From positions 75,200,033 to 75,264,032 of the forward strand of contig CM048845.1 in NCBI GenBank assembly GCA_026545225.1: DNA of 64,000 nt. Reading direction: 5' to 3'. The notes under the pieces were generated by a model that was given only the letters and a program-made list of their open reading frames with translations, did no database searches and had not been told where the DNA came from. A program made the position numbers and the translations under genes. The stretch comes from Cornus controversa (taxonomy: Eukaryota > Streptophyta > Magnoliopsida > Cornales > Cornaceae). Below, in pieces: positions 11,411-59,588 of this stretch. Position 1 is the first letter of the stretch, and each line of letters opens with the position of its first letter.

Positions 11411-13753
11411 GAGAGAAAATCTCAGAAACACAATTATCATCGTTGTCGTTATATATGTTGATTTTGGATGGCTCAAAGATGAGAGGAGATCCTAAAAACA
11501 AAACACACTTTTTAGTTAACAATTGCATTAGAAAATAATTCATTAAAAAAATTTAATAAACAATTACCATTATCTTCTTGAGACATTAACCAACTCTGAA
11601 CACATATCAAAGCCTCCAAAGTAGATGGATGAAGTCTACTACGGTGTGGACTAATCACTCGACCACCAGTGCTAAAAGCAGACTTTGATGCAACGGTAGA
11701 CACAGGAATAGCTAAAACATCTCGAGCAATCTTTTGCAAAATAGGAAACTTGACTCCATTCGACTTTCACCAAGCTAACACATCAAAATTATCAGTTCTA
11801 GGCAACACACTTTCTTCCAAGTAAAAGTCTAACTCAGTCCTTGTATGCATACTAGTCGCACTCGACTTGACATACTTATAATACTTATCGATACTAGTAT
11901 TCTCCGAATTAGTAGCTCCACTTAAAGAAGGAAACTTAGAAGAAGAAACACCAACATTAGTAGTTCCATCCGACATTGCCTTGCTTTGGTACTCACAAAC
12001 CAAATCATAAACACTTTTGCGAACTTTTTGAATTTCAATAAAATCTTCATCCCCATAAATTTTTCGAAAATGAAATTCAACTAGCTTCATCTTATATCAT
12101 GGATCTAAAACACCAGCCACTGCCATTATAACATGACAAACATCCCAATATTTCAAAATTTTCTCCATCATTTTTGATGCCATCACTCTAATGATCTCAC
12201 TTGAACTTTAAAGCCATGTAGACAATTCCTCTCTAATCTCACAAACTTTATGGAAATAACAATTGGCAGTAAGATAGTTAGTACCGGAAAATAATTCTAT
12301 GATAGTGTAAAACAATTTCAATTTTTCACAAATTTCTTTTCCTTTTTCCCAATCTTGATCAATTGGCAATCTAGTGTAAAGTCTTTCACGTTGTTTTAAT
12401 CGTGGGAACACATCCTTAAAATCCAAAGCAACTTGAAGCATGAGATATGTTGAGTTCCAACGGGTTTTACAATCAAGAGCTAACTTTCTAATGCACGTGA
12501 TTTTTAATTGGCGGGCAGTTTCTTCAAAATTTTCAATTCTACTTGGGGTTGCTGTCCAAAAATGAACACTATCATGTATTTTTTCTATCCCATCCCCAAT
12601 TACTTCTAACTCATCCTTCACAACCAAGTTTAAGATGTGTGCACAACATCTCATGTGAAAAACTCTTCCCTCGAGTAAAAGTGAATTACAATTAAGCTTA
12701 TCTAAAAGACTACCAATGATGGCATCATTTGTGGAGCAATTATCCAAAGTAATTGTGGATAACTTCCTATCAATATTCCAATCCAAAAATCTATTCATGA
12801 GAACATTAGAAAGAACTCCTTTGTTATAGGGAGCGGGCACATACATAAACCTAAAATGAATTAAAATTAAAAATAATACATAATTAACAAAACTATAACA
12901 AGCAAATTAAAGAAAATAAATGAATTCCAAATGACCAAAGAGAAAGATATAGAAGAAGAAAGTAATACTACCTCAAAATTTTTTGTTGCAACTCCCATGA
13001 ATCATCGATGAAGTGAGCTGTTAATGCCATGAAACCTTTCTTTGTGTGATTACAAGTCCACATATCGGAAATGATGGCAATTCTACTATCAAGATTGTCT
13101 AACAACCAACTTGTTTTAGCCTTCTCATATTCATAAACCTTCATGATGTCACTGTTGATTCTGTTTTGAGAAACCACCTTAAATAGAGGTTGAAGTAAAT
13201 TACAAAATCTCTGAAAGCGGACATGGTCAACGATGGAGAGTGGATACTCATGTACTATGATCATGGAAGCAAGCTCATCTCGTGCAGCTTCTTGATCAAA
13301 CACAAAATTACGATATTCCACTTGTCCATCATTTTTTCTTAAATTAGCTTGCAAAACTTGTTGTCTGATATCTTTGTTTTTTCGTTTCGGACACCTTGCT
13401 AAATGTTCACGCAAGCTACTTGTTCCATTCCTACTAGGTGCTTTCAACTTTGAAGTACAATGGTTACAAATACCATAATCCATCCCATCTATGGTTACCT
13501 TTTTAAAATCATTCCAAACAATTGATGTTAATTTTTTTTTTTTGGACGAAATTGTTGAATCAGGAATGGATTCATCAAATGAGTCGGCCACTGAACTGAC
13601 AATTATATTGGGAGCTGTAATGGGAGGAGGATTGGGAGCGGGAGCAGAAATAGAAGCTGAATTGGGAGTAGAATTAGGAAAAGAATTGATTGGAGATGAA
13701 TCATCATTTGTTGACAAATCTACCAATTTACTGTGATTATGTCCTTGTGACAT
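11406..13753 (-). pseudogene. hAT transposase gene (BED finger), three stops
   Basis: Encodes a cut-and-paste transposase of the Ac/Tip-like hAT superfamily. The ATG chosen (13751-13753) starts MSQGHNHSK. After a low-complexity Asn/Pro/Ser leader comes a BED zinc finger (VWNDFKKV, CNHC, HLARC; about residues 80-130). The first catalytic Asp is in IISDMWT and the second in TLDNCSTND. The C-terminal dimerisation block reads IPVSTVASKSAFSTGGRV then SPHRSRLHPSTLEALICVQS. Two introns with GT-AG ends fit: 12853-12971 (119 nt) and 11492-11567 (76 nt). The second adds a final acidic exon ending SEIFSQ at 11406. Three in-frame stops interrupt it: 12208-12210, 12097-12099 (where the family has Arg in DPRYKM, so CGA to TGA) and 11767-11769 (family Trp, TGG to TGA). 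No frameshift was seen. An upstream untranslated exon is possible in 13800-14700. Confidence 0.9.
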
Positions 13754-14404
13754 CTTCCAATTTACCACGCTGGCATAGAAACAAGCATTGAAATTTCAAT
13801 TAAAAATATCACCTTCACCGACAAAAAATTTATATTTCAGCATTTTAGTTTGCACATTATGGTGTTGAAAATAGTTCCCTAAAAACAAATTAGTTCTACT
13901 AGGTTCAATTTTGTTCTTTGTTCTATTAGGAGTACTTGAGTAACGATAACTTCTAAGACTCAAAATATAATACTTTCTTTCAGACAATTTCTCAGCAACC
14001 AAAACAGCACATAATGGAGTAACACAATTCAATTCATAGCCAAAAACAAATACAAGGAACAGATCTGGTAATTCAGAGAAGACAACTACAAAAAATATTA
14101 GAGGTATATAAAAGCTGGACTAGAAAGAGACTTTATGCAATCACAAAAAAACACGAAGATTGTGTGTACAGTCTTTTTGCAAACATACATATGATATATA
14201 GATCAACATGATTAGTACAGTCTTTTTGCAAGTTTTTGGATGCCACGATTGCTTCAAAAGATACACAGTTCAGTTCATCATCGCCTTATTTGGCAATATC
14301 ATCCCAAAACTCAGATGTTCACACTCTCAGTACTCATGCCAATCAACATTCAATATTACTACCACTACCACCACAAGTTCCAAATTTAGATATTTGAATA
14401 CAAA

Positions 14405-19439: not shown

Positions 19440-20028
19440 AAAGCACTTGCGATGCACGTGGATAAAAAATAAATTAAAATTTTATTATAACACTCAAAAC
19501 ATTCAAAACTATTATAACACATCCAAACACATTAATTAAAACGCCCAAAAATATTTCCATTATATAACCTTGATAATATAAACTCAATTGTTGAAAAATA
19601 AAACTATAAGGTAACTATTATTCACATGGTAGCCGAGAGGAAGAGTGATTTTAGGTGCTTAGGATTTTGCTTGGGTAATTCTCTTTTTTAATTTATAAAT
19701 AAAAAAGGAAAGGGAAGAATGATTTTAGGTGTTTAGGGTTTTGCGAGTTCTAATTCTATTTTTTTAAATTTAAAAATTAGAAATAAAAAGAAAGGGTTTT
19801 AATTGGGAAATGGTTTTGCTTGGGTAATTCTATTTTTTTTTTTAATTTCAAAATAAAAAGGAAAGGTTTTTGCTTGGGTAATTCTATTTTTTTAATTTAA
19901 AAATAAAAATATAGTGTACTAAAACTAAAAAACCCTTTTGTACTTTTAATAGTATATTTAAAAATAAAAATTTAGCGTACTGAAACTAAAAATTCCCTTT
20001 GTACTTTTAATAGTAGTATATATATATA
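19440..20028. other. AT-rich degenerate tandem repeats
   Basis: Units built from ttttgcttgggtaattctattttt and aaaaataaaaaggaaa recur four or five times between 19660 and 19910. A second pair (actaaaa[c]tcccttttgtacttttaatagta) lies at 19917-20015. No coding content. Confidence 0.6.
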
Positions 20029-20209
20029 GAGTAATGATCTCTTGTTCACCGGTGAGAAAAAAATTCATTCACACCAAGCACAATAACCGTTGGATGTGAT
20101 TGCTAAGTTTATTTTGGTAATTGTCTTTTTTATATCAATTACATCTAGCGGTTATTGTGTTTCGTGTGAATGAGTTTCTTACTCACCAGTGAGTAAGAGA
20201 TCATTACTC
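20029..20209. mobile_element. 181-bp MITE with long inverted arms
   Basis: Starts gagtaatgatctctt and ends aagagatcattactc. The two arms, about 70-75 bp each, are inverted repeats with roughly 85% identity (left acaataaccgttggatgtgattg, right arm reverse complement acaataaccgctagatgtaattg). Flanks atatatata and atatgtata could be a 9-bp target duplication as in Mutator-like MITEs, but the TA-rich context makes that uncertain. Confidence 0.8.
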
Positions 20210-20513
20210 ATATGTATATATATATAATACAACTAAGGCTACTAATGAGCCTAGCCATTCGCGATCAGTTCGGGCTCGGTTCGTGAGAAAAAAATTCATT
20301 CACACCAAGCACAATAACCGTTGGATGTGATTGCTAAGTTTATTTTGGTAATTGTCTTTTTTATATCAATTACATCTAGCGGTTATTGTGTTTCGTGTGA
20401 ATGAGTTTCTTACTCACCAGTGAGTAAGAGATCATTACTCATATGTATATATATATAATACAACTAAGGCTACTAATGAGCCTAGCCATTCGCGATCAGT
20501 TCGGGCTCGGTTC
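20052..20513. repeat. 231-bp tandem duplication through the MITE
   Basis: 20052-20282 and 20283-20513 look identical by eye. The unit starts inside the MITE at gtgagaaaa and ends 75 bp beyond it, so the second copy carries a MITE without its first 23 bases. The two breakpoints share a gtga microhomology (20052, 20283, 20514). Confidence 0.95.
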
Positions 20514-20687
20514 GTGAAGAGCTCGATTTGCATTTGTTTATTTAATAAACGAACCGAACTCAAACAGAATTATGAAACTCGATTTGTAAACGAGTTGAGT
20601 TTGAACAACACTAGACTCGGCTTGTTTGTTCGTGAACATGATACAAACAGAGCTCGATAATAAGTTCACGAACAAGATTGATTACAA

Positions 20688-20735
<48 letters not shown>
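20464..20735. repeat. Non-autonomous-element-like sequence and TA microsatellite
   Basis: 20490-20690 is dense in gagctcg, ttcgtgaa and aacgagt motifs in both orientations, the style of plant non-autonomous hAT families, but without clear ends. It runs into a (TA)n microsatellite at 20691-20735. Confidence 0.4.
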
Positions 20736-20736
<1 letters not shown>

Positions 20737-20739
20737 CTT

Positions 20740-20966
20740 TAGCCCAGCCTAACCAAATCAATAAAATGGATTACCAAACTTTTTAAAAATAAAATGGACC
20801 AAATCCAAGAGAATTAACATAGCTCAAACCTAAGCCCATGTTCTGAAAGCCCATCTATATATATTCTTTAACTACTCAATTCCTCTCCACCCTAGCCGCA
20901 CAGCCCGCACTCCTCTCTCTACATCCTAAGTCCCAACTCACGACCGCCGATCTGTATTTTGTGTTT

Positions 20967-21001
<35 letters not shown>

Positions 21002-21146
21002 GCATGGGACGATGGTGACGATGGCTTTGGCGAGATCGGAGCAGTGGCCTTGACGAGATCGGTGATTTTCCAGGTATTTCTACTTTTTATAATTTTGTAT
21101 GAAATTTCTTTTGATGGAAATTTAGTTTTAGACAGATATGTGCATT
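20740..21146 (+). promoter_or_regulatory. Promoter / 5'-UTR-like stretch, no gene proven
   Basis: A TATA-like tatatatattc at 20857-20867 is followed by a C-rich stretch containing a telo-box-like accctag (20890-20897), then a (CT)14 run at 20969-20998. This arrangement is typical of plant housekeeping-gene 5' ends. Behind it short ATG frames stop within 15 codons, and a possible splice donor (CCAG|GTATTT) lies at 21071-21076. No coding exon could be identified downstream, so this may be a relic or the start of a non-coding transcript. Confidence 0.3.
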
Positions 21147-22750
21147 GTGCCCTTTCCTCCTCCTCTTTTTCTTCTTCTTCGACTGCTCTCTCTCTCCCTC
21201 TTCTTCTTCTTCTTCGAACCTTTTTAAGCTTTGAAGTGATGTTCTGTGCCTCTGTTCAAGAATGCGTACTGAATTTCCATTTTCTGTTCTGGTTTTTTTT
21301 TTTATCTTTATCTTAAGTGATTTTTCAATCAATAAGTGCTCAGCTTTGTTTGAAATCTACTATTCTGTATGTTATTTAATCTAGTGCAGCATTTATTGAA
21401 ATCTGCTCTGTCTATTTTAAAAAAAAAAAAATCTGTTTCCTGTTTTTTTTTCCTGTTAATTGCCATGAATATGTTAATTTACTGTTACATATTTTTTAAT
21501 ATGTTTGAAGCTGAAATATGTTTTTTGCTGCTCTTTGGGTGCATTTGGCTACAAATGTTAGAAACTTGAATGATAAATTTGACTTTGCTCCTTTCCTCTT
21601 CTTCTTATCGAGAGTTGAGTTGTTTTTTCTTCTTGTAAGTGAGAGATTTTACTGTTGTTGTTCCATAATGGTTGAGGATATTTTGACTTTGCTCCTTTCC
21701 TCTTCTTCTTCTTCGACTGCTCTCTCTCTCTTTCTTCTTCTTCGACTGCTCTTTCTCTCTCTCCCTCTTCTTCTTCTTCTTCTTCTTCTTCGAACCTTTT
21801 TAAGCTTTGAAGTGATGCTCTGTGCCTCTCTTCAAGAATCAGTATAGAGTATGCTGAATTTCCATTTTCTGTTTCCATTTCTGTTCTGTTTTTTTTTTTT
21901 ATCTTATCTTAAGTGATTTTTCAATCAATAAGATCAGCTCTGTTTGAAATCTTCTATTCTGTATGTTATAAGTAATCATCTCTGTTAATGTAGTGCAGTA
22001 TTTATTGAAATCTGCTCTGTTTATTTTTATAAAAAAAAAATCTGTTTTCTGTTTTATTTCCTGTTAATTGCCATGAATATGTTAATTTACTGTTATATAT
22101 TTTTTGAATATGTTTGAAGCTGAAATATGTTTTTTTGCTGCTCTTTGGATGCATTTGGCTACAAATGTTTGCTCCTTTCCTCTCTTCTTCTTCTTCTTCT
22201 TCGAATGCTGTCTTTCTCTCTCTCTCTCTCTCTTCTTCTTCGACTGCTCTCTCTCTCTTTCTTCTTCTTCGACTGTTCTTTCTCTCTCTCCCTCTTCTTC
22301 TTCCTCGAACCTTTTTAAGCTTTGAAGTGATGCTCTGTGCCTCTCTTCAAGAATGAGTATAGAGTATGCCGAATTTCCATTTTCTGTTTCCATTTCTGTT
22401 GTTTTTTTTAATCTTATCTTAAGTGATTTTCAATCAATAAGTGATCAGCTCTGTTTTATATTGAAATCTGCTATTCTGTATGTTATAAGTAATCATCTCT
22501 GTTTTAATCTATTACATTTATAATGTGTTTCTTAATCTAATGCAGCATTTATTGAAATCTGCTCTGTTTTTTTTAAAAAAAAAATCTGTTTTCCGTTTTA
22601 TTTCCTGTTAATTGCCATCAATATTTCTTGTTAATTGCCATCAATATGATAATTTACTGTTATATTTTTTTTAATATGTTTGAAGCTGAAATATGTTTTT
22701 TTACTGCTCTTTGGGTGCATTTGGCTACAAATGTTAGAAACTTGAATGAT
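21147..22750. repeat. Three-unit pyrimidine-rich tandem repeat
   Basis: Three irregular head-to-tail units of roughly 440-580 bp. Each has a CTT/CT-rich head (21150-21215, 21690-21795, 22170-22310) followed by a conserved body that begins gaacctttttaagctttgaa (21218, 21791, 22308) and ends near gctgctctttgg[ga]tgcattt. A cgagagtt...ccataatggttgagga segment occurs at 21609-21680 and again at 22774-22845, so the array has also been rearranged. Long Ser/Leu or Glu/Arg frames here come from the simple repeats and are not genes. Confidence 0.8.
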
Positions 22751-22845
22751 AAATTTGACTACCTTTATTTTATCGAGAGTTAGAGTTGTTTTTTCTTCTT
22801 GTAAGTGAGAGCTCTTACTGTTGTTGTTCCATAATGGTTGAGGAT

Positions 22846-23593
22846 GTTTTGACTTTGAGTATATTGGTTCTAAAGGCTACAAAACTCTTCACCTATTGTG
22901 TTTTAGACATATAATCATTGTTTTATGTGGATACATAATATTAGTCAATTATGTTGAGAGAATGCTCTATATTCTGAGTTCATGTGTTTCTTGTTTTGTA
23001 GCTGGTATTGCTTTTTCAATTTGTTCATAAATGTTATGATGTAATTACATTTTGAGTGAAGTCAAGCTGGTGCCTTGTTTACAAGATGTATACTCCTGTA
23101 ATATAAAACCACACATCTGTGAGTTGGTTTACTTCTTTGACAAGTTGAATGTTTCATCTTCTTTTTTAGTCTTCACGCACGCGTATGAGATGCATATATG
23201 ACAATATAGAACTTTTTCTCTATACTCGTGTGTGTCTATATGTGGCCTTTTTTTGGGGGGTTGTTGTTGGTGTGCACAACTGCTATGTGTTAGTGCAATC
23301 TTGAACTTCATTTCATCTCCTACAAGTGACATACATCACAATAGTTCTTGCTCACTGTTCGACTGGGTGATGCTTATATTTCAATGTTCTTTTACTATAT
23401 TTAGGTTGTGCCAAAACTCATTTTGAAAACATGACAATACATGATTTATGTTTTTATGTTCCAAAGGTATCTGTTTTAAACAAGCATGAATTTTGTATAA
23501 ATGGTTGTTCTTAATTTTAATTTTTGTTGTTTTTCAGAAGGATGTTAGCTGCAAATGTTAAAGGATCTATATGGTTTAATATCGTTTGATCTC
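22846..23593. other. Intergenic, no gene recognised
   Basis: AT-rich. A TTTTTCAG acceptor-like site at 23531-23538 and several short frames were noted, but nothing supports a gene. Confidence 0.4.
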
Positions 23594-24835
23594 GACACAA
23601 GACATTAAGCATAAGGGTCCGCAACGTTGTTAGATCATTGGTCCGTGACTCTCATTACCTATTATACAGAAATAAATAAATTAAGATTACCCATCTATAC
23701 ACATGGGTTGGTTAAAAGTACACATTTATTTTTAAAAAAATTCCATGGAGTTGCAAACAACAACTTTCCTTTAACTTGTTTTCCACTTTTTGTTATTACG
23801 ATTTCATTAGAAAGATCCTCATGAGACATTCCCATATAAAAAGTTAACTTTAATGTCTTTGTGATGTTCCTGTTTCACAAAAATCAAATAATAATTATAA
23901 TTAATTGAATTATAAAATAATTCTAAATTAAAAATATATATTAATAAATATGGCCTTAAATTTTGGTTTAATGAATTTCAGCCAATTGTCCTCTTCCTTC
24001 ACTTTATATTCATTATAAACCTCGTCCAACCATAAATAAGGTATCTCACTCTAATGAATTAAATATGCTTCTGCAACATATTTTGATTTGAAACCTTTGA
24101 TTTTCTTGAAGTCTTTATGTGCCTTTTCAGAGATAGCTTTGCTGTCGTCCGTTCTCCCATATCTTACCAATGTAATTTCAAACAGGGAGTTTGACAAAAT
24201 ATAGTTGGTGTATATATATTTTGATTTGAAACTTTTGATCAACTGTATTTTGTCAAACTCCCTGTTTGAAATTACATTGGTAAGACATGGGAGAACGGAC
24301 CACATAGAGACTTCAAGAAAATCAAAGTTTTAAATCAAAATATGTTGCAGAAGCATATTTAATTCATGAGAGTGAGATACTTAGCTGTTGAAAAGTTTGA
24401 CCAAACTTTAGACACATGGGACGAGATTTATAATGAATATAAAGTGAAGGGGAGGACAATTGGCTGAAATTCATTGAACCAAAATTTAAGGCCATTTTTG
24501 GGTAAAAAAATCCATTAATATATATTTTTAATTCAGAATTATTTTTTAATTCAATTAATTATAATTATTATTTGATTTTTGTGAAACAATGTCTCATGGG
24601 ATCTTTCCAATGGGATCGTAATAACAAAAAAAAGTGGAGAAGAAGTTAAAGGAAAGTTGTTGTTTGTAACTCCATGGAATTTTTTTAAAGATAAATGTGT
24701 ACTTTTAACCAACCTAACCCATGTGTATAGATGCTTAATTTTAATTTATTTATTTCTGTCTACTAGGTAATGAGATTCAAGCACGGACCAATGATCTAAC
24801 AACGTTGCGGAACCTTATGCTTAATGTGTTGTGTC
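23594..24835. repeat. Large inverted repeat, about 600-bp arms, 32-nt loop
   Basis: The left arm (23594-24207, 614 bp) is the reverse complement of the right arm (24240-24835, 596 bp) with perhaps 85-90% identity and several small indels. The outer ends pair gacacaa with ttgtgtc. Perfect blocks include 29 nt starting ccgcaacgttg at 23619 and about 37 nt near the apex starting taccaatgtaa at 24166. The loop is 24208-24239. A transcript would fold into one long hairpin. Candidates are a fold-back element, an inverted duplication of a gene fragment (one frame in the right arm reads RYLAVEKFDQTLDTWDEIYN), or a hairpin-RNA source. No target duplication was found at the outer ends. Confidence 0.9.
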
Positions 24836-26544
24836 CCTAAGTCCATTTCCCAAAACTTGGTTTTTTCGAGATTGAAAAAAAGATTTGAGGTTCTTTCTTT
24901 GCCAACTCAACAGGCCAATCTCAGTTACCACCAAGTAAGAACCTTTATATATTTTATTGTATTTCAAAATTGACTGCCGGATAACAGCCATTTTTTTTGT
25001 GATTTTAAGGGTCAAAGAGTATTGTGTCTGGGTCATGGATGAGCCTTGCTTTTGGTCGCCGGAGAAAAGAAACATGTTTATGAGAAAAATTTATCACCTA
25101 CACACCAATTTTAATACTTGGGATTCCGTAAGAACCCCTTTGCCTCCATATTCATACCCAACGAGAGGGATGTGTGGCACTTGCTGAAACAACAAGACCA
25201 ACGATTAATTGAAGTGGCAGAACATGGTGCAAGAGAAATAAGAGTAGCACCAATTGAAGCAGCAGTAAGAATACAACAAAACAAAAAGAAAAATTCATTG
25301 GGGCATAGGATGGTACAACTCCCCAAACTATACCAGCACGGATACGAACACTACCACCATGGTCACCAAGTAATTACTTTTTTAAGAATTTAAGAGTGGT
25401 GAATAGATTGTTTAGAATTCTATTTTTTAATCTAAATTTAATATTGCATATCACCGATGTAGCTTATAGTGACAAGATGAATGTGATTTTAGATTATTCG
25501 TGCACCGAGCTGAAGGATTATTTGTCTATTATCTTTTGGGGTAGGGATGGCAAAAAGGACGGTGGTTGGATGTGTTACATGTAATGCTATATCACTAGCC
25601 ACTAATATTACATGGCTCTGTCTTAACAGAACTTAACAAATAATCTTTTATTTATTTTTGCAGGTAGACAATTTTGTTTCTTCGCAGTTCGAAGAAGTTC
25701 TAACCGTGGTAAGCTCTGTTTTATGTGTAACAATAAACCCATTTATGGTTACCAACATTTTACAATCTAACTGGTTAGACCAATAATCAGTCAGTTGAAT
25801 TGAAGGTTTTAGAATTATCAAGTCCCTTAGATAAATGGTCTTGGACGCTAAATATTTATCTTTTTCCTATAAATATGTTTCTATGTTAATTTTCTTTCCC
25901 ATTGTATTTAATTCTTATTACGGCTCTTGTATTATTACTCTTTTACGCATTCGAGTTAATTGCTTGAAATTTAGATTTATGTCGTCAGAATTTCGAGATT
26001 GCTTGGGATTATTTGTTTTTTAGAATGTGGATTAGAATAGTTGGAACAATATAGAGTTTGGGACGGGGATAAAGATCAGAATCTCAACTAGCCTTTTGAG
26101 CTCCTGAAGTTCTCTCATGTCACTTTAATGAAACATGCCTTCTGAATTGTATGCTTTTTTTATTTTTGGGGGAATGATAATTTACCTGACCCACTCCAAT
26201 CATCAACAGAGATGGAGTATATATTACCAGTTATGGCTAATTCAACATACTGAGGAATTGGCTTATCCAAAACTGAGGTTCTTTTGAATCTTTTTTACTA
26301 AAACCAACACAACTGAGAGAGTAGGTTACAATATTAGCTGAATTGTACAAACACGTCAAAATTCACCATTTTTGTCTGTTTCTACCCTCTTCTCAACCTC
26401 TCTCTAAAGTTTGCTTTTAGCCTTTGCATTTTGCTAAAGAATAGGCAATCCTTGTATAGGGCTTGAAAACACTAGTTTACTTTGAACTACTTTCACAAGA
26501 TCAATTGATTTAAACCTATATTTTCAACTTCTACTGCAGCTATT
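24836..26544. other. Intergenic with one coding-like frame
   Basis: The only coding-looking stretch is 25118-25390 (+), which reads NPFASIFIPNERDVWHLL and on to a Gln/Lys-rich part, ending near a possible donor (CACCAA|GTAATT at 25371). It has no ATG at its start and no family that I recognise, so it may be one exon of an unknown gene or a captured fragment. The rest is AT-rich with no recognised element. Confidence 0.3.
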
Positions 26545-28554: not shown

Positions 28555-29778
28555 TTACATTGCAATGCCGCTGAGAATGTGGTCGCCATGGACACAGCAG
28601 TAGGTTGACTTCAACACATGAGAGGCAACAAACTTGACCTTTTGTTCACCCTCAAGCTTTGGCTCAGGCTCAGGCTCCTTAGACACCGTAAACTTTAAGC
28701 AGGCAACGACGAGTTGATCCTCTCCATTTGGTCCTTCTAATGTATAATCTTCTTCCCATAGGAGACAGAATTTTGTGCCGCCACGTAGGTGGAGCAAAGT
28801 GGCAGGTGGATACGTACCCAAATTGCTAGGTTGGGGAAGCAAATCCAAATCCTTGTCGTTTAAGAAGGTGAGCTTTTTTGGTTTGGCGTGAGGTATATTG
28901 GAATCAAAACAGAGAATGGAGCCCGGTGCGACTTTGTAATCTAGGGAGCGCTCTAGATCAAAATCCCATGCTGGGTAGTTGCCATGCGAATACAAGATGT
29001 CATGAGAAAAAACGAGACTCATGCACCGATAGCGATAGGGACCAAAGTCATCTGCATAATGACTCCATGAACAGTGATTGAAATTGTATTTATATAGTGA
29101 GTGTACGTGGCAGTTGTCATTAATACGCACCAAAAGCTCCGATTCTCCACTGCTGTTGTTCACCCGAAATTGATGCGCATCTATGTGAAGATATCCTCTA
29201 AAAGCATCGGGTATCTTAGACAATGCTTGTCGCCAGCATCTTCTGCTCTCAGCCTCCTCGGGATCAAAAACTTCGGCATAATATGAAATATAATCATCAT
29301 AATTCCGCCAACCATTATCATCTATGACAAAACCCCCCAGGACGTAGATCTTGCCATGAAGAGTAAAGACCTGAGCACCGATCCTTTCCATGGTCATAGG
29401 AGGACATCTGGTCCACCCACTCTTGGGATCAAGAGTGTTGATGCAATAGACGTCCTTGGAGGGGTCACGATAGTCTGACCATTCCAAATAGCCACCAAGA
29501 ACGTACAATACCGAACCTAAGGCGACACAGGTGGTAGTGTTCATAACGGGTGAATGAATTGGTTGCAAATCGGGAAAAACAGGAGAGAGAGATTCATTTT
29601 CATTTGGCCTTGTATCGTTTTTTATTACGTACCAGTGGCATTTTCCGTCATCGTCATTCCCTTCTGCGGTAAAGTATATGTCTGGATCTTCTTCTTCTTC
29701 TTCGTTGCCCATCATCTCTTCTCCTTTTTCTGCAATAGTTTCTTCTTCTTTGCCAATCATCGATTCTCGATTCTCCAT
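28555..29778 (-). CDS. Kelch-repeat protein, copy A
   Basis: An intact 407-codon frame from ATG (29776-29778) to TAA. The N-terminal 30 residues are Glu-rich. At least two kelch blades are clear: TTTCVALGSVLYVLGGY with the double Gly at residues 95-96, and RIGAQVFTLHGKIYVLGGF with the double Gly at 148-149, each followed by a Tyr or Trp strand and a VFDPEE- or NTLDPKSGW-type turn. Later blades are degenerate. Near the C-terminus is an acidic EPEPEPKLEGEQKVKF linker. No F-box, transmembrane segment or signal peptide is visible. Kelch propellers usually bind protein partners; a specific role cannot be assigned. About 92% identical to copy B. A poly(A)-signal-like AATAAAA lies at 28239-28245. 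The last codons overlap a strong donor (GTAAGT), so the frame may instead be spliced onto a further exon. The frame is undamaged, which suggests a working gene. Confidence 0.85.
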   Translation of the reverse strand: MENRESMIGKEEETIAEKGEEMMGNEEEEEDPDIYFTAEGNDDDGKCHWYVIKNDTRPNENESLSPVFPDLQPIHSPVMNTTTCVALGSVLYVLGGYLEWSDYRDPSKDVYCINTLDPKSGWTRCPPMTMERIGAQVFTLHGKIYVLGGFVIDDNGWRNYDDYISYYAEVFDPEEAESRRCWRQALSKIPDAFRGYLHIDAHQFRVNNSSGESELLVRINDNCHVHSLYKYNFNHCSWSHYADDFGPYRYRCMSLVFSHDILYSHGNYPAWDFDLERSLDYKVAPGSILCFDSNIPHAKPKKLTFLNDKDLDLLPQPSNLGTYPPATLLHLRGGTKFCLLWEEDYTLEGPNGEDQLVVACLKFTVSKEPEPEPKLEGEQKVKFVASHVLKSTYCCVHGDHILSGIAM

Positions 29779-29927
29779 TAGTTCTACAAGGAATTCTTAA
29801 CCCCTCGATTGAAGACGACGGGCAGTCCTGTTCTAAGGTCGGCCCGCTCCTAGTAGTCTTTTCTCTCTTTCTTTACCCAGCTATCAGACGCAACTGACGC
29901 GAGCTATCTTTTGGGGATTCAGGTTAG

Positions 29928-43206: not shown

Positions 43207-46200
43207 TCAAGACCTTAGATTATCTACAAAAGACAACATGGCTTTCGAAGATAAACAAAAAAAGCCCTCCGACCAAAAGAAGAGGGAGCTAAGGACAGAG
43301 GATCTAAATACTCCCCAAGGCATCTCTTTGTCCTCAAAGGATCTCTTGTTTCTCTCATTCCATAAGGCCCACCATAAGCAATGAGGGGCAACCCTCCATG
43401 AATGCCGAATATCATGCCGTACCCGAAGACAATGCCACGCTAGAATGCAGCTCGCCACCAACTTAGGCATAACCCATTGCACACCAAAAATATCACAAAG
43501 AAGGTCCATCCCTCTCTTGCTCTAGGACAATGAAGAAGCAGATGGTCAACAGATTCCTCCGCCCGTTTGCACATACAGCACCAATTCGTTAACATGTGTC
43601 CTCTCTTTCTTAGATTATCGATTGTCAGGATCTTTCCCATTGATGCAACCCACACAAAGAAAGCCACCTTCAAGGGGGCTCTAGACCGCCAAATACCTTT
43701 CCAAGGAACGGAAGGCTCTTGAGATATCATCAAACTCCTGTAAAAAGTCCATACCTCAAAACGCCCATGATTCGACCCCGTCCAAACAATCTCGCCACGC
43801 CCCTCCCTAGGGCAATCCTGTCCGTAAAGAAAGGCCAAGAACTCCATCATCTCCTCAGTCTCCCAATCATGCAGTCTTCTCTCAAACCGAATATCCCAGA
43901 TCAGTCGTCCGCCATCAAGATGATAGCACTGAGCGACCATTACCTGTCTATCCCGTGCAATGCTAGCAATTCTTAGATAAAGATTCTCTAGCGATCTGTC
44001 GCCACACCATTGATCTTTCCAGAAGTTTACTAGTTGACCATCCTTCACCCTATAGTGAATGTGCTTTGAGAACTCGTTCCATTCTTTCGCAATATACCTC
44101 CATAACCCAACCCCAACCAGTGTCCTCGACCTCATCGAGCACCATCCCGCCCTATCCTCTCCGTATTTATAACATATAACCCACCTCCACAACCTGTTTC
44201 TCTCCATCCCAAACCGCCACAACCACTTCCCTAAAAGAGCTTTATTGAATACCTTCAATTTCTGCACCCCTAGCCCTCCCATTTGAAAAGGACGACAAAC
44301 CTGCTCCCAACTCACTAAATGATACTTAGTCTCCTCCCTCATCCCACCCCATAGAAAATTCCCCTGCAACCTATCCAACTTCCTCAACAAAGCAATCGAC
44401 AATTGGAAGAGGGACATGAAATAGGTGGGAAGACTCGAAAGTGTGCTCTTAATCAGCGTCAATCTTCCCCCTTTTGAAAGGTACTGTTTCTTCCATCCTG
44501 CTAGCCTCCTCTCAAAGCGTTGCACTTCAGGATCCCAAAGAGATGCTCTCCGCGCCTGTACCCCTAACGGTAAACCCAAGTACGTCATAGGGAAAGAACC
44601 CACTCTGCATCCCAAAACATTAGCCAAAAGCTCAATCTCCTCCACCTCCCCTACAGGGGCAATCTCACTTTTCCCAAAATTCACCTTTAGGCCTGAAACT
44701 GCCTGAAAACAGAGAAGTGTCCCTCTCAGGTGCCTCAACTGACTCATCTCAGCATCACAGAACACAATGGTATCGTCTGCAAAAAGCAAGTGAGACACCT
44801 CCATATGACTAGCCGGATTCCTCCCCACTTTAAAGCCTCTGTAGTAACCCAGATCACAAGCTCGCCTCATCAGTTTGCTGAAAGCCTCCATCACAATAAT
44901 AAACAGCGAAGGAGATAGTGGAACCCCCTGTCTCAACCCTCTCGAACTCCCAAAAAAACCAAAAGGAACACAATTGATAAGAACCAAAAATTTCACCGTG
45001 GAGATGCAAAATCTAATCCAGCCCCTCCATCTCTCCCCAAACCCCATCCTCTCTAGAAGATAGATCAAAAAATCCTAGTTCACATGATCATATGCCTTCT
45101 CCACATCAAGTTTACAAACCATCCCTGGCTCACCAGAACAAAAACGGGCATCCACACACTCACTAGCAACCAAGACTGAGTCCAGAATCTGACGACCTCC
45201 AACAAAGGCATTTTAAGATTCCGAGATGACTCCGTCCAACACTTCCTTCAATCTTAACGCTAGAACTTTAGCAATGATCTTATAAACACTTCCCACCAAA
45301 CTAATGGGTCTTAAGTCACGAATATTGTCAACCCCTCCCTTCTTCGGAATCAAAGCAATGAAGGTTGCATTCAAAGATTTTTCGAACTTCCCATTAGCAT
45401 GGAAAGCATGGATAGTTGCCAACACTTCCCTTTTTACCACCTCCCAGTTATGATGAAGGAATGCCATAGAAAACCCATCTGGACCTGGGGCTTTATCCCC
45501 TTTGCAACAATAAAGGGCACATCTCACCTCCTCCTCTTCAAAGGGTCTCTCCAAGCGGTCCCTATCATCCTCAGAAATCCTATCAAACTCCAAAACCCCC
45601 TAACAGGGGCCTCCAATCCACGGTCTCCCTATACAGTTGTTGATAGAAAGAAGTCACACCTCTCACCACCTATTCCTCTTTGTTTAGAACATTTCCATTA
45701 ATTTTAATCCTCCCGATGTTGTTACCCCTCCTATGAGTATTGGCCATCCTATGAAAAAATCTCGTATTTCGATCCCCCTCTTTTAACCACAAAACCCAGG
45801 ATTTTTGTAGCCACGATATCTCTTCCATAATAGCGATCTCCTCAATTTCTGCCCTGTGCTCCTCCCTTCTCGATCTTTCCTCCTCCCCCAAACCCTCCAT
45901 GCTTTCCTTCCTATCCAAGTCAGCTAAAGCTCCCATAGTCCTGTTCTTCCTCCATTCAAGATTGCCAAACGACTCCTTATTCCACTTTTCTAGGTCTTCT
46001 TTCAATCTATGAAGCTTCCCCACAAGCACAAAACTGGGATTGCCCCGGATCTCATAGCCAGTCCACCAACCTTTCACCATCTCCTTAAATCCTTCCGCCT
46101 TGAGCCACATATTCTCAAACTTGAACGACGTTTTCCTCCTTCTCAAACCCCCACAATCCAATAACAATGGAATATGATCTGATGTTAGCCTTGCCATCGC

Positions 46201-46867
46201 CACCTGAGTCACATCCGGATACCTCTCTTCCCAGTCCCCCGAGATCAAAAACCGATCCAACCTAGAAAGAGTCGGGGTATCTCTACCACTAGACCAAGTG
46301 AATCTAGATCCTTCGAGGGGTAAGTCTATCAACTATCAACCCCTCTAAATCAATGAACTCCGAGAAAGAAGACATGGCCGCCATCCATCTTCCACCCGAG
46401 GACCTCTCATCCGGGGATCGAACAACATTTAGGTCTCCCCCCACACACCACAGAACTCCCCATTGCCTGCGCACATCTGACAACTCCTCCCACAAAACAC
46501 TCCTCTCAACATCCTCCACCGGACCATAAACTCCAGAGAACATCCACTCTGCTCCATCCTCTTCAAATTTAAACAAACAAGAAATGGAAAATCTTCCTCT
46601 CCTCACATTTTTTCTAGACACCCATCTCTTATCCCAAATCACCAAAATACCTCCTGCCGTCCCCACTGCATCAAGAGCCTCCCAATCCATAAAACGCCCA
46701 CCACAAATACTGCTCACCGTCTCCTTGGAAACATTACTCAATTTAGTTTCTTGCAAACAAATAACTTGAGCCCCCCACTTACGAAGACCCAACTTCACTA
46801 CCTTCCTCTTGTTCAGGTCATTCAGACCCCGAACATTCCATGTCACTAAGCGCATCTTCATAGACAT
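43207..46867 (-). pseudogene. L1 ORF2 (endonuclease, RT, zf-RVT), interrupted
   Basis: Starts at ATG 46865-46867. An apurinic-type endonuclease has RLVTWNVRGLND, CLQETK, GGDLNVVRSPDERSG-like and LTSDHIPLLL blocks (46.86-46.15 kb). The reverse transcriptase follows: [46 protein letters not shown] and the catalytic LLFADDTIVF near 44.76 kb. Next are the thumb block (GGRLTLIKSTLSSLPTYFMS) and a zf-RVT region (CMCKRAEESVDHLLLHC) near 43.55 kb. Frames shift near 46.31, 45.63 and 43.50 kb. In-frame stops include 45213-45215 (family Gln in SESQNAF) and one at about 45078 (family Trp in NWDFL), both explained by single transitions. The catalytic FADD is intact. Confidence 0.92.
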
Positions 46868-49333
46868 ATGATGGCTTTCTCCTCCTCCCTCCTTCCCTCT
46901 TGACTCCTTCCCCTCTCCGACCCACTCCTCCCTTCGTAGTTAACATAAGAGATAAGGTTACGGAGCTCTCTCTCTCCCTTCCAAGATGAGCATTTCCTTC
47001 TTCCAGCAAACTTCTGTTTTCCTTCTAGGACTCCAAAAATTCCCATAGACCTCTCTTCCTCCCCTGCAAATGTCAACCCAAGATTCTGGCTCATCTCCTC
47101 TACATTGTTTCTCAGCCATCTCTCCACTTCCTCATTAGAGCTTCGTTGTCCTTCTTGATCCCCTCCATCTTCTGGACCCATAGTTGCCAACGGGTGAGTC
47201 ATACCCCATTCTTCCTCTTCCTCATTTCTAGTCACAATGGCCTGCTTAAACTCAACCTATGCAGTAGGAATTTCTTCCTCAGCTTCATCTCCCCCCATTA
47301 GCCCATCTGCATGGCACCCATGTCCTATTTCGGGTTCAACAGAATCTGTTGGGCTGAATTTATTCCCATTACCCACCCCACTGTGCATCTTGATCTCACT
47401 CATTAACACTGCATTCTGGAGGCTCAACTGAATCCCTTTCCCAACACACAGAATAAGTCCCCCATATCTTCTGTCCGGCTTAATTGACAGCTCTGGAGAC
47501 CCATAATCCCTCATATATAATTCTCCACCCACCTGCTCTGTTGTCAGAAGCTGTCTCAACACAGATCCTGAACCAACAACTTTCTCCTTCCTTCCTCCAT
47601 ACAACAACCCCTCTTCACCCGGTTCCCTTCCTGTTCTCCCCTTAAAAGAGACAGATGAAGAAGGATAGAAAGAATAAAGAACAGTGGTTGGGGCCGACCT
47701 TCTAACCTCAGCTATGCCCTGAAAATTTTCACGAATCTGCTCGTGTCGACCTTGACTTCATAACCCACTTCTGTTTCTCCTTTCTCGACCATCTCTTCCC
47801 CACTGAAGAATTATGAGAAAGAGAGCGAGACTTCATTGCATCGTTATTATGGTCACGCATGGTCTCAGATCTTCTGTCCTTGTCCCCATTTCTGTGAGTC
47901 GCCCCTGACCTGTGCCAAGCCACCCCATTCTCGTCAGCCTCCTTTCGTCTCCTTTCAAACACTGCAACATCGTTTGGTGAAGCCTTGTAGCCATTATAGC
48001 TCTGTTCAATCCTCTGTATAACCGAAGAACTTCTGTGCTTAGCTCGGTCCTTTTTGATCCCATTTCCTTTGACTCTTTTACCTTTCAACATGATCCCATT
48101 TTTAAAAGGCCCATTCTCAAGAGGCCCATGCAAGGAAACATTACCCTCTTTCGGCTTCCGCAGAATTTTTCTCTCCTTAAAATTCATTGAGCCCAATCTT
48201 TTGAAGCTGAGGCCCAGCCTGACCTGGTTATCTTCACCATCCCCTTGCTCTTTGTTTATTGGGCTAGAAAGAGGCCCATAACGATTAGAAGAAGTCAGCA
48301 TAGGCTTAGCTGTAAGCCCATCCGAATTTGAATTTCGAAATGGTCTGCGATCACGTGAGGCTTTTGCCACGTGCCCCAACCCCCCACCGCCACGCATCCC
48401 GACAGCTGGCACCCACTCTAATCGCTCGTCCGGATCTGACGACCCACGTGCCCACGCTGTCCTATACTGACCATTCATGTCCTCCTGGTGACGCGTCTCT
48501 GGCGCGTGAAACTCCCATCGTCCCTGTCCTTGCTTCAGCTCCATTCTCGTCCGTCCCTTTCCATGTTTGATCTTCTCTACAGCACCATGATGGTTCCTTT
48601 GAAAGCCCTCATCCTTCAATCTCCACCATTCCGCTTCAGAAATAAGCTCCCGTTCATCTCTTCCAGCAAGGGACACGACTGTGGGAACCATCTCTGGCGA
48701 CTTTTCTTCTGTGACTGGCACCTTGTAACAAAACCGGTCGTCTTCGATCCAAACAAACTCTGGGATCTCACCACCCTCCTTAATCAAGATCGTAACTTTC
48801 GTCGCATCTTTTGTAGCATCAGCCTCCACCCCAACGAACCCACCACACGCCTCCCCCACTGCGGCGAACAAAGAATCACACCATAGATGGAGCGGCAACC
48901 CACAAAGCATAACTCGGCGTTCCCTCCTCACCCTCGATCCTCCAGATATTCCAACTCGAAAGTACCACACGTCGATTCTCAGATTCGCCTCTCCCCACGT
49001 CCTTCTACCTTCATGGAGAACTCTGACGGCCTCTGCGTGCGACGGCAACTGAAAAAGCAATAGTGACTCTGGCATCGGAACCACCCTAACCCCACATGAA
49101 ACTCTCCAAGCCTTCAATGCCCACTCTACTATCCTCTCTACCGACCCAACGTTTTTGTCGAATTTCCCAATAAGACACGCCCTCAACATCTCTCTTCTGT
49201 GCCATAAGCCATCGTCTTCCACTTTGAGACATAACCCTCTCGTTTCCATCGTGTTTAACACTGTAGTTCCCCCCCCCCCCCCCCCCGAGAATAGACTTGG
49301 TAACTTAGCGATTTCTGCGTACGTTTTCGCCAT
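46858..49333 (-). pseudogene. L1 ORF1 (DUF4283-type), interrupted
   Basis: Starts at ATG 49331-49333 (MAKTYAEIAKLPSLF), then a poly-Gly run from a G-tract at 49268-49286. Residues about 30-210 form the DUF4283-like domain seen in plant L1 ORF1 proteins (LCLKVEDDGLWHRREMLRAC, ALKAWRVS, PLHLWCDSLFAAVGEACGGF). This region is thought to bind RNA in the retroelement particle. The first frame runs 534 codons to a stop at 47729. After a frameshift the next frame continues through 47607-47257, a TAG there, and on to 46858, where the family's typical end GERELRNLISYVNYEGRS is found. The end overlaps the ORF2 start by about 10 bases. Confidence 0.85.
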
Positions 49334-49754
49334 TTTTGCCCAAGCTAAACTTTCGTTACTGTTTCACCTTGACAAACAAATCATTTACCGTTACTGTTTT
49401 CACAGATGGAAGAAAATCGTTGCCTTCTCTTTCTCCGATTTCCGATCATCTTCCTAAATAAGTCTTAAAGGAATTCTTCACCTAGTTATATTCGCATACC
49501 TTCGCCGGGGGCTGCGGCTTCTTGACCTGCCACTAGTTCCTGGTCCAAATATTCTTATGTGGTTCCCACGGACCTATGTCACACCTTAACCTCTGGACTT
49601 GTTTGAAGACCTCAAGGAACCTCCATTCTTCTGAAAAACCTGGAGGAGACCACCAAGGGAAGTGACACCTCGACTGAGCTGCCTAGGTTGGGTGCAGAGC
49701 TTAGGGGCCTCACACATACACACAACATAGTATCACTTTATGGGATCCTACGGT

Positions 49755-52048: not shown

Positions 52049-52336
52049 TGATGGAGATCCTAAGCCGGATGGTCTACGCACTTACTATAGGCGTAGACGT
52101 AGAGGATGATTTTGATTTATTTTATTTTATATGTATTTTCCTTATTTATTTAGGACTCTTATTTTCCTTTTAGGGTTATTGTTTTGCCTATAAATAGGGA
52201 TAGCTAATACATTGTGACGGTACTTTTTGATGATTATTATTGAATACATTTCTTGAGATTTCTCTTCTCCTTCTGTTCTTCTCTTTCTCTCTTCTTCTTC
52301 CCCTCTCTCTCCTTTTCTTTCAAGCCTCCTGCATCA
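52049..52336 (+). repeat. 5' LTR of the chromovirus
   Basis: 288 bp, tgatgg...gcatca. It has a TATA-like cctataaatag at about 52188-52198, a plausible promoter, followed by a CT-rich 3' half. Confidence 0.97.
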
Positions 52337-52340
52337 ATTT

Positions 52341-52352
52341 TGGTATCAGAGC
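52341..52352 (+). promoter_or_regulatory. Primer binding site (initiator tRNA-Met)
   Basis: tggtatcagagc, four bases after the 5' LTR end. Confidence 0.92.
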
Positions 52353-52394
52353 GAAGATCCATATTACTTCTGTTAGCATCTACTGTTCACAGCA

Positions 52395-52675
52395 ATAGTA
52401 AACCTACCATTCATCCATCTGAAAACCCTAACAGCCGCCCTAAACCTGCTGTTCATCCATCTGAAAACCCTAGCAGCCGCCCCTAAAGCCCTTGTTTATC
52501 CATATAAAACCCTAGCAGCCGCCTCACATCATATTCCTCACACCCAATCCCTAAACCTACTGTTCATCCATCTTAAAACCCTAGCAGCCGCCCCTAAAGC
52601 CCTGTTTATCCATCTGAAAAACCCTAGCAGCCGCCTCACATCATATTCCTCACACCCAATACCTAAACCCTGCAC
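52395..52675 (+). repeat. Tandem repeats in the chromovirus leader
   Basis: Units built on catccatctgaaaaccctagcagccgcc recur about six times, with a longer-period copy of about 117 bp (the tcacatcatattcctcacaccc segment occurs at 52524 and 52638). Each unit includes an aaaccctag motif identical in core to the plant telomere repeat or telo-box. Confidence 0.85.
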
Positions 52676-55600
52676 CATCTTCAACCCAAACAAAATAATC
52701 CCTAGCCGCCACTACCACCAACTATATAACAAGACCCAAGTCAAGTGAAACCCTACAGAGTATTTCTGCCGGCGACCACTGGAACCCTAATCACCGTTTG
52801 CCATAAACCAGCCAACAATACTTATCCAGACCACAAATACAAAAAAACCAAACGCAGAAATTTTTTTTTTTTTTATCCAGATCTGAAAACCCATCAGCTT
52901 CTCATCATCCCCTTAACACAGCAAATCACCTTCGCCGGAAAACCTTTCATCTTCGCCGATCGTCCCTCCAGCCAACGCATACTCAGATCTTTGCTGCCAG
53001 AATCTACTCGCACTACCAAAGCTGCCAACAACAGAAGCTGGAAGCCAACGTTGCTGGAAGCCATCGTCACCGGAGTCGGAGCCTTCTCGCGGTCAACCAT
53101 CCAGTCCAATCCTCTCTCGCTGATGCCATAGTCAAAGCTTCTCTCGGTCATTTTTTTTACACAGACTGTTGTTGTTTGGGACAGGAGCAGAATTATTAAA
53201 AGGGCCCAGAATTGATCTGTTTGGTTACAAAGTCAGAAATAGACTAGTTCTGGATCCAGTCCAGAACTGAGCCAGTTTCAGCACTACACCAAACTAGTTC
53301 TTTTGTAAACCAGTTCAGCCAAAAAAAAAAAAAAAAACAGAATATCTATTTCAATTTCCAGCCACCTTGGATGTTTCTCTTGCGAACTACTTAAAGCTTC
53401 GGTTAAGGTAAGTTTTCTTCATTTGAAAATTGTTCTAATACTTTATTTCATTTGATTTAAGTCTAGAAATTTGCATGGTCCTAGCTGAACGTTGAACCTT
53501 TAATTTTTACTTGAACCTTTACTTTTCTTACCCATATTTTCTCTTACTAGCACAAAATTCACATCTGTTTTGTTATTATCTTATCCACCATTGCTTTGTT
53601 ATTAACACTTTGGCACCAAAAATACCTCTACTGTATGCACAAACTTTTGCATAATTAATTTCTTTGAGTTTAAATTCCTGATGAGCATCGTAGCATTTAA
53701 TAATTTGAATTACTTAATTTAATTCTCTGTTTGTGCATTTTAATTTAGCATTTTGCATTAAGCTTTAGTAAGGGCACAACCCCAACAAGATAAGGATTGG
53801 ATTTCATCACCAATTCCTTGCCCACCTAGGTTAAACATCTCCTTGCATTTGTATTACCCAAGCCAAGTTTAGATAATTTAAAAATTAATTAGACGTTGGC
53901 CATAGGGTACATGAAGCTTGTAGGACCCTCTTGGAAGGAGTTGACTTCTGGTAACCCCATTGAGCATCCTCCAATTTCACATGTTTGGGAAGGTTCTGTC
54001 TAAGGAGATTGGATATTAAGTGGGACCGTTGTGACCCCTCCATTCTTTCCTGGGAATTTTCCTGCCTGTGTTATTGGTAGAACTTAATTGGAAATCCTCT
54101 AGTTACTCTGAAAAAGAGTAGGAGCTCTTTAATTAGGAGAGAACTATTTTAGAATTAATCCTCTTAATTCTTTAAAAAAAAAAAAAAAAAATCCCTTGCA
54201 TTTAGCTAATTTAAAGTCAAATATCGGCATACTCCCACAACCTTAAACCTGTCGAGTCCATCCTAGTAGTTCACCATGACCATTGGAGACCTATATAACT
54301 TCCAAACTTCAATAGAGGAGCGAGTTCACAACATAGAACAAAACATGACTGGTTTAACAGACTCCATGGCCCGACTAAGTGAAGAGGTGGCTAAGCTGAC
54401 CACTTCCATAGGTAAGCGTCCCATTGATGAACCTAAGGTTGATACATCAATTTCTCCAAAACATAGGACAAATCTTAATGGTAGTCACCATGATGATCCA
54501 ATTGAGTATTTAAATCCTCGTCGTGGTCTTCTCCCTATGCCCGAGGCTACTCGAACCCCTCAGCAAAGGAATCCTAGCTTTAGAGAGAGTCGAGTTCCAA
54601 ATGCTAGCAAACCTCTACCACATGTTCACCATCGAGTCGTAGATCGCAGGTTTCCACTGGAAGACTTTGAGGACTTAGATGAGTTAGAACCAGAACCTAG
54701 GGATGATCACGAGGATCATCAGAGACATTTTAGGCCCCAAGGTAGATACCAAGATAGGCGTCAACATCATCATTTCCCCCAGAGGAATTACCATGAAGCT
54801 AGGTACTATCATGATGGGTCGGGAGATATTACAAAGAAAGTTAAAGTTGATGCTCCTAGTTATGATGGTAGGCTAGATCCTAATGCATTTCTTGATTGGT
54901 TAGATGACATGGAAGACTATTTTGAATGGTATGATATGTCAGATAGTCATAGAGTGAGATTTGCCAAGATGAAATTAGTGGGCTCTGCCAAGAGGTATTG
55001 GCAAGGAGTTCAAAGAAATCTAGAGCACTTAGGTGATGAACCTATTACATTGTGGGCTGAAATGAAACAGAAATTGAAAGAGAAATATCTTCCCACCTAT
55101 CATAGGAGACAATTGTTAGAACAATTGATGAATTTGAGACAGATGTCTTCTAGTGTGACTGAATACTTGTCTCGTTTTGAGGAACTTATGATGAGGTGTG
55201 ATGTAAAGGAAGAGTCATGGGTCACAGTAGCTAAATTTATCAATGGATTAAAAACTGAGATTCAGAGAGAAGTCAACTTGCATGCACCTGACACGCTAGA
55301 AGAAGCTTATCAAAAGGCTTTAGAGATTGAGAAATATTATAAGCTTCCTAACCCTAGGCGAATGACCTCTCAAGCCGGTGTATCCCAACAAACTAAATCA
55401 GTTTCCTTCGAGAGATCTCGTGGGACTATACAATCTGGGACACCTACCTCTAGAGGTAGCAACAACCCTAACCAGAGAGCTAATACTTTTAGGGGTAATA
55501 CATCTAGTTCTCGACCCGATATATCCTCTATAGAATGTTTCCATTGTCACAGTAAAGGTCATTATGCTTCACGTTGTCCTCATCGTACCTTGACCTTAGA

Positions 55601-58600: not shown

Positions 58601-59225
58601 CTGCTGATTCCTTCGCCCAGCACATCCGTGATGTTCATGCCGATATAAAACGGAAAATTGCTTTAAGTAATGAAAATTATAAAATTGCTGCTAATGCTCA
58701 TCGTAGGAATCAGGAATTCAATGAAAGAGATTATGTTATGGTTCGTATACGCCCAGAGCGTTATCCTAAAAACTCTTTCAAGAAATTGCATGCTCGTGCT
58801 TCTGGCCCATTTCGTATCATACGTAAGTTGGGACCTAATGCTTATTTACTTGACTTACCATCTGATATGGGTATTAGTCCAATTTTCAATATAGAGGACT
58901 TGTTTCCTTACCGAGGCACCTTTGAGCCTCCTGCATTTCCGACAGGTACCCCCATAGGTGGAGATGCATCTTCATCATCACCATTGCCAGTTCTTCCAGC
59001 GATTCCGCCACGGAGTACAGATCAGATTGCAGACGTACTTGACCATCAGATTATTGCTTCTCATCAGGGTGGTTGTCAGCGATACCTTGTTCGTTGGAGA
59101 GATCGTTCGGATACAGATGATACCTGGATCACAGAGGAGGAGTTTCGTCGTATTGACCCAGACCTTTTGGAGCAATATCACGAGCTTTACTCTCCAGAGG
59201 AGAGTTCTTCTCAGCCGGGGAGAAT

Positions 59226-59513: not shown

Positions 59514-59588
59514 AGTAGGTGAAGGGAGACAAGAAAGTAGACAAAGATAGAGAAAAACTAGACAAAGAGAAAAGAAGGGGGAGAAGAA

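What the first reader, a model, noticed from the sequence alone, without database searches (positions are those of the whole stretch)
23594..24835. Long inverted repeat that would form a hairpin of about 600 bp
Arms of 614 and 596 bp at roughly 85-90% identity around a 32-nt loop, with perfect blocks of 29 and about 37 nt. Such loci are known sources of 21-24-nt small RNAs and of young MIRNA-like genes; others are fold-back transposons. Neither a transposase nor a target duplication is visible, and the arms contain a coding-like stretch that may come from a host gene, which would then be the silencing target.
Basis: partly seen in the sequence, partly recalled or inferred. Interest (0 to 1): 0.7.

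Follow-up and report, generated by a model that had tools for sequence, protein, structure and literature searches.

The report
Single-copy inverted duplication in plant DNA
A 600-base piece of apparently non-coding plant DNA seems to have been copied once, backwards, next to itself; it could make a hairpin RNA if it is transcribed, but it does not look like a transposon or like a copy of a known gene.

Summary
The hairpin is real: arms 23594-24207 and 24240-24835 around a 32-nt loop, 510 of 545 aligned bases identical, 518 base pairs between the arms as RNA. I found one copy in the 772-Mb plant genome. The left arm finds the right arm, one diverged locus 184 kb away and a 52-bp AT-rich match; the right arm finds only the left. 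Two palindromic repeats from the same region gave 645 and 660 candidates in the same search. The diverged locus matches the right arm and also DNA beyond its outer end, so the right arm is in its older context and the left arm is most likely an inverted copy made on the spot. No target-site duplication and no convincing protein match were found. In the loop, 24 of 32 bases repeat a piece of the left arm with one mismatch (0 of 5000 random loops do as well), like the templated filler of polymerase-theta end joining. On the left lies a broken fragment of a PITH-domain gene; a fuller copy lies about 55 kb downstream. I see no host gene behind the arms. Small RNAs could not be tested, nor were isolated 21-nt targets searched; if transcribed, it would resemble Arabidopsis endo-IR loci. 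An ordinary kind of plant locus.

The parts
23594..24207 (+). left arm (614 bp), read here as the inverted copy
   Evidence: its match to the diverged locus L003 starts at window 23588, at about the arm's outer end
24208..24239 (+). 32-nt loop; 24216-24239 is a 23-of-24 copy of 24078-24101, read as templated filler DNA
   Evidence: (family D3)
24078..24101 (+). stretch of the left arm that the loop repeats in direct orientation (proposed template)
24240..24835 (-). right arm (596 bp), in its older context
   Evidence: homology to L003 runs past its end to 24919, with further blocks beyond
24836..25725 (.). flank 'Y': patchy homology (24836-24919, 25262-25357, 25413-25475, 25630-25725) to C1:75038058-75039182 in collinear, inverted order; no known protein family
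22737..23484 (+). broken fragment of a PITH-domain gene: end of intron 1 and about the first 18 nt of exon 2 (23467 on); a fuller copy lies downstream of the window
23485..23593 (.). junction DNA between the PITH fragment and the left arm, no relative found
   Evidence: longest outside match ends at base 744 of the 857-base query

Best explanation
A local inverted duplication, found in one copy. About 600 bp of AT-rich, apparently non-coding DNA next to flank Y was copied in reverse beside itself, probably during repair of a DNA break, with a 24-nt templated filler left in the loop; it has since decayed by substitutions and short indels. If transcription from either side runs through it, the RNA would fold into a near-perfect duplex (518 pairs between the arms), a likely substrate for DICER-LIKE 2, 3 and 4. 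Any siRNAs would then act mainly in cis on the locus, because no other extended close match was found in the genome; isolated 21-24-nt matches elsewhere were not searched. Shown: anatomy, copy number within the sensitivity of the searches, flank homology, loop repeat. Inferred: the repair mechanism, the age, and everything about RNA in the cell.
For: Copy number: the left arm gave 5 matches from 3 candidates: itself, the right arm, two pieces of one diverged locus and a 52-bp match on C7; the right arm gave only the two arms from 1 candidate; 33-nt and 35-nt patterns from the outer end and the tip, up to 3 mismatches, hit only the two arms in 772 Mb. Positive controls: a MITE in the window gave 645 candidates, 40 scored, 87 matches; a fold-back palindrome about 178 kb before the window start gave 660 candidates, 40 scored, 96 matches. 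Right arm in old context: L003 matches window 24608-24919 in one alignment across the right arm's outer end, and further blocks to 25725 follow in collinear order. Loop: 23 of 24 bases repeat 24078-24101; 0 of 5000 Markov random 32-mers (best score 20 against 22) and 0 of 1000 real 32-mers from the flanks score as high. No direct repeat of 3-8 bp at the ends, sought with offsets up to 6 bases. RNA fold -772.8 kcal/mol, 518 pairs between the arms, 12 of them G-U.
Against: The right-arm search missed the diverged locus that local BLAST shows to match the right arm at 67%, so old copies near 70% identity can be missed by the genome search. L003 carries arm positions 1-209 followed at once by positions 251-322 in inverted orientation. 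That could be a small inversion there, or the remnant of an older hairpin; in the second case the hairpin is older than its 93.6% arm identity suggests and the arms were homogenised by gene conversion. In the part shared with L003, 5 sites look derived in the left arm, 5 in the right and 4 are unresolved, so substitutions do not say which arm is the copy; only the flank does. The loop repeat could be a tandem repeat that existed before.
Confidence: 0.8

Rival explanations
1. A fold-back transposon or MITE that moved here, of which other copies have been lost or have diverged.
For: Palindrome with a short loop and no recognised coding capacity, as in MITEs; high-copy palindromes lie nearby.
Against: One copy found in 772 Mb; no target-site duplication; the only relative shares the flank outside the arm, so it looks like a duplicated segment, not a jump. 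Limit: copies near 70% identity can be missed (one search missed L003).
Confidence: 0.07
2. A functional endogenous inverted-repeat siRNA locus or proto-MIRNA whose hairpin RNA is kept by selection.
For: Near-perfect RNA duplex with 518 pairs between the arms. Local inverted duplications in plants are reported to give small RNAs ranging from uniform miRNAs to heterogeneous siRNAs (PMC1790633, passages), and IR71 is processed by DCL2, DCL3 and DCL4 (PMC12825306, passages).
Against: No expression data. Differences between arms do not clearly favour G-U wobble on the + strand (13 of 21 transitions, P 0.38). No Rfam family reaches its gathering score in the hairpin; mir-786 fits the hairpin tip on both strands (49.9 and 48.9 bits, E 2.2e-9 and 4.5e-9) but lies far below its gathering score of 93. 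No extended close match elsewhere in the genome; short 21-24-nt targets not searched.
Confidence: 0.2
3. An older hairpin shared with L003, kept alike by arm-to-arm gene conversion.
For: L003 has arm 1-209 and inverted arm 251-322 a few bases apart, as a hairpin with a deleted tip would look; in the part compared, the arms are 201 of 215 identical to each other but only 156 of 212 and 161 of 219 to L003.
Against: The sequence beyond the inverted fragment in L003 shows no further arm homology (Z -0.4 to 0.2); a small inversion explains it as well.
Confidence: 0.15

Closest known systems
Endogenous inverted-repeat siRNA loci of Arabidopsis (IR71, IR2039)
   Same: A long, near-perfect inverted repeat whose RNA would be a duplex without an RNA-dependent RNA polymerase.
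   Different: No transcript or small RNA is known here; the duplex is about 0.6 kb against about 3 kb for IR71 (PMC12825306, passages).
Young MIRNA genes born by inverted duplication of protein-coding genes (MIR161, MIR163 type)
   Same: Local inverted duplication, found in one copy.
   Different: The arms resemble no protein-coding gene in the searches made, and the duplex is far longer and better paired than a usual miRNA precursor (recalled).
Fold-back transposons and MITEs
   Same: Palindrome without recognised coding capacity.
   Different: One copy found, no target-site duplication, and homology continues into the flank.
Repair-born inverted duplications with templated filler (fold-back synthesis; polymerase-theta end joining)
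   Same: Inverted copy beside its source and a 24-nt filler copied from nearby. Templated insertions are described for TMEJ in Arabidopsis (PMC10923293, passages) and fold-back inversions at breaks in yeast (PMC11724301, passages).
   Different: The yeast events are 2 to about 150 bp long; this one is about 600 bp.

Membership tests
Fold-back transposon or MITE | many dispersed copies of the palindrome | tested here: not met
   with positive controls; copies near 70% identity can be missed
Fold-back transposon or MITE | target-site duplication | tested here: not met
   no shared 3-8-mer at the ends with offsets up to 6 bases
Endogenous inverted-repeat siRNA locus | long near-perfect RNA hairpin | tested here: met
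   (prediction)
Endogenous inverted-repeat siRNA locus | transcribed and diced into 21-, 22- and 24-nt RNAs along the arms | not testable with these tools
   no RNA reads available
MIRNA gene by inverted duplication of a gene | arms similar to a protein-coding gene | tested here: not met
   (own genome, Pfam and PDB only)
MIRNA gene by inverted duplication of a gene | one precise miRNA/miRNA* duplex | not testable with these tools
   no RNA reads; mir-786 scores 49.9 bits (E 2.2e-9) against a gathering score of 93, read as a fit to a perfect hairpin rather than kinship
Local repair-born inverted duplication | inverted copy adjacent to its source in the source's older context | tested here: met
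Local repair-born inverted duplication | templated filler or microhomology at the junction | tested here: met
   loop repeat of 23 of 24 bases; an older tandem repeat is not excluded

The most novel reading that the evidence does not exclude
A newborn hairpin-RNA gene: transcription entering from the broken PITH-gene fragment reads through the inverted duplication, and the siRNAs methylate the locus in cis, or act on short matches not searched here or on sequences absent from this reference (other haplotypes, pathogens).
Probability: 0.12. Interest if true: 0.5.

Novelty: new member of a known kind. Interest (0 to 1): 0.22.

Why it matters
It shows, with a probable repair scar in the loop, how one inverted duplication that no transposon appears to have made can create a potential siRNA source. 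Single-copy cases with an identifiable parent arm are useful for testing how often new hairpins are transcribed and silenced. In itself it is an ordinary by-product of a rearranged region.

Tried and rejected
Host gene behind the arms: not supported. miRNA and snoRNA families: four hits on the hairpin at E up to 1, all below the gathering score (mir-786 on both strands, snoZ266, mir-4703), none in the hairpin at the gathering score. Selection on RNA pairing: no significant signal. Polarising substitutions: a first count gave 3 left-derived, 11 right-derived and 5 neither, but the end of that alignment was misregistered, so I replaced it with 5, 5 and 4. My notebook calls L003 closer to the right arm; the final count does not support that. 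Flank Y as a gene: a 92-aa open frame, no Pfam match; the best outside protein match is the diverged locus (E 0.02), then one on C4 (E 0.375). A peptide read from L003 had only a weak Pfam match (E 0.039, 14.2 bits, cutoff 27), taken as chance. A transcript from about 20.9 kb spliced into the hairpin was considered by eye only and is not claimed. Genome-wide baseline of long palindromes: only five 10-kb stretches outside the region were obtained.

Full report
What is there. Window 23594-24835 is an inverted repeat: left arm 23594-24207, loop 24208-24239, right arm 24240-24835. The arms share 510 of 545 ungapped aligned bases (K2P 0.067) and fold as RNA into one long hairpin at -772.8 kcal/mol, with 551 pairs, 518 of them between the arms, 12 of these G-U. 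The window carries a plant U3 snoRNA, so the organism is a plant; the assembly is 772 Mb in 61 contigs and the window is C1:75200033-75264032.

Copy number. The left arm used as query gave 5 matches from 3 candidates: itself, the right arm, two pieces of one diverged locus at C1:75039228-75039523 (L003), and a 52-bp match on C7 that is AT-rich by eye (sequence). The right arm gave only the two arms, from 1 candidate, although local BLAST shows that it matches L003 at 67%; so the genome search can miss relatives of that age. Patterns of 33 and 35 nt from the outer end and the tip, up to 3 mismatches, hit only the two arms. The tool warns that very common words are skipped, so I used two positive controls: a MITE at 20045-20240 gave 645 candidates, of which 40 were scored, with 87 matches; a fold-back palindrome, L009:2386-2700, gave 660 candidates, 40 scored, 96 matches. 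I conclude that the hairpin has no close second copy. Isolated matches of 21-24 nt were not searched.

Which arm is original. L003 matches window 24608-24919 in one alignment, across the outer end of the right arm at 24835, and further blocks at 25262-25357, 25413-25475 and 25630-25725 follow in collinear (inverted) order. The left arm's match to L003 begins at about the arm's outer end (window 23588). So the right arm together with flank Y is the older unit and the left arm its inverted copy. Substitutions are neutral on this: 5 left-derived, 5 right-derived, 4 unresolved of 14. L003 also holds arm positions 251-322 inverted, a few bases after positions 1-209; beyond that no arm homology is found (Z -0.4 to 0.2). 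I cannot tell a small inversion from the stump of an older hairpin.

Birth mark. In the loop, 24216-24239 repeats 24078-24101 in direct orientation with one mismatch. None of 5000 dinucleotide-Markov random loops and none of 1000 real 32-mers from the flanks matches the arms as well. Templated insertions are a described product of polymerase-theta end joining in Arabidopsis (PMC10923293, passages), and fold-back synthesis makes inverted copies at breaks in yeast, though only 2 to about 150 bp long (PMC11724301, passages). A repair origin is therefore likely, but it is inferred. At assumed rates of 1.3e-8 and 7e-9 substitutions per site per year (recalled), the arms diverged 2.6 to 4.8 million years ago, unless gene conversion has reset them.

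Surroundings. On the left, 22737-23480 matches C1:75277763-75278476 at 78% and, in part, C1:75045710-75046174 at 79%. The first of these, about 55 kb away, is the end of intron 1 and the start of exon 2 of a PITH-domain gene: an exon-1-like peptide (D 11665-11748; no Pfam match, named from recall), exon 2 (PITH, E 2.3e-4, 21.3 bits, below the curated cutoff of 23.7) and a C-terminal exon (PITH, E 2.8e-12, 47 bits) lie in order in L016 and L017 (D is L015-L018 laid end to end, starting at C1:75264033). I saw these three pieces, not the whole gene. Neither the window nor C1:75020001-75060000 has any of the three peptides (tblastn at E 0.01), so what they hold are broken fragments. In the upstream locus as well, the arm relative lies within about 70-200 bp of a PITH intron fragment, so the region looks like a set of rearranged segmental duplicates. 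No target-site duplication was found. The frames tested from the arms, the loop and Y match no protein family at E below 0.1 (and the Y queries; one frame has a match at E 0.14; not every frame was tested).

Function. A duplex of this kind, if transcribed, is a likely substrate for DCL2, DCL3 and DCL4: endogenous inverted-repeat siRNAs come from very long stem-loops without an RDR (PMC4687873, passages), IR71 and IR2039 being named examples (PMC5910406, passages; PMC12825306 for IR71, passages). New MIRNA genes can arise by inverted duplication of protein-coding genes (PMC1790633, passages; a genome-wide update of the model, PMC3237417, abstract and section list only). Here the arms resemble no gene that I could find, so a trans target by descent is not expected in this genome; cis silencing or no product at all is more likely. 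There is no significant sign of selection on pairing (13 of 21 transitions are of the wobble type on the + strand, P 0.38).

Verdict. The object is an ordinary local inverted duplication, found in one copy and probably repair-born, in a rearranged region; I see no sign that it is a fold-back transposon or a gene-derived silencer. Whether it makes small RNAs is open.

Noticed in passing
window 28555-29796 and 61058-62323 (- strand): Two kelch-repeat protein genes (Pfam tested on the first only), about 33 kb apart, within a duplicated 2.9-kb segment at 93% identity.
   Followed up: partly
window 52049-59514: Ty3/gypsy-like element (named by eye) between two identical 289-bp direct repeats (52049-52337, 59226-59514), which suggests a recent insertion.
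   Followed up: no
window 20007-20517: Palindromic MITE with an exact 231-bp tandem duplication; 645 candidate copies in the genome, 40 scored.
   Followed up: partly
window 21163-22857: Three diverged direct copies of a roughly 550-bp CT-rich unit around the start of the PITH fragment; 20732-21150 has 83-85% relatives about 170 kb upstream on the other strand.
   Followed up: no
L009:2386-3046: A fold-back palindrome of about 660 bp, 76% A+T, with 660 candidate copies in the genome, 40 scored.
   Followed up: partly
L015-L018: Downstream of the window: pieces of a PITH-domain gene and the start of a ferrochelatase gene, and a MULE-like transposase frame (by eye).
   Followed up: partly
L010 6949-7263 (- strand): Frame that looks like a histone H2B pseudogene (by eye, not tested).
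   Followed up: no
C1:75042900-75045200 (in L011): Frames that look like a Ty1/copia element (by eye); they lie in the 5.5-kb stretch that splits the upstream PITH intron fragment.
   Followed up: no
window 43440-49363 and 12208-13795 (- strand): Long frames that look like a LINE (by eye) and a hAT transposase (weak Pfam match for 12208-12906, E 0.0011, below cutoff).
   Followed up: no
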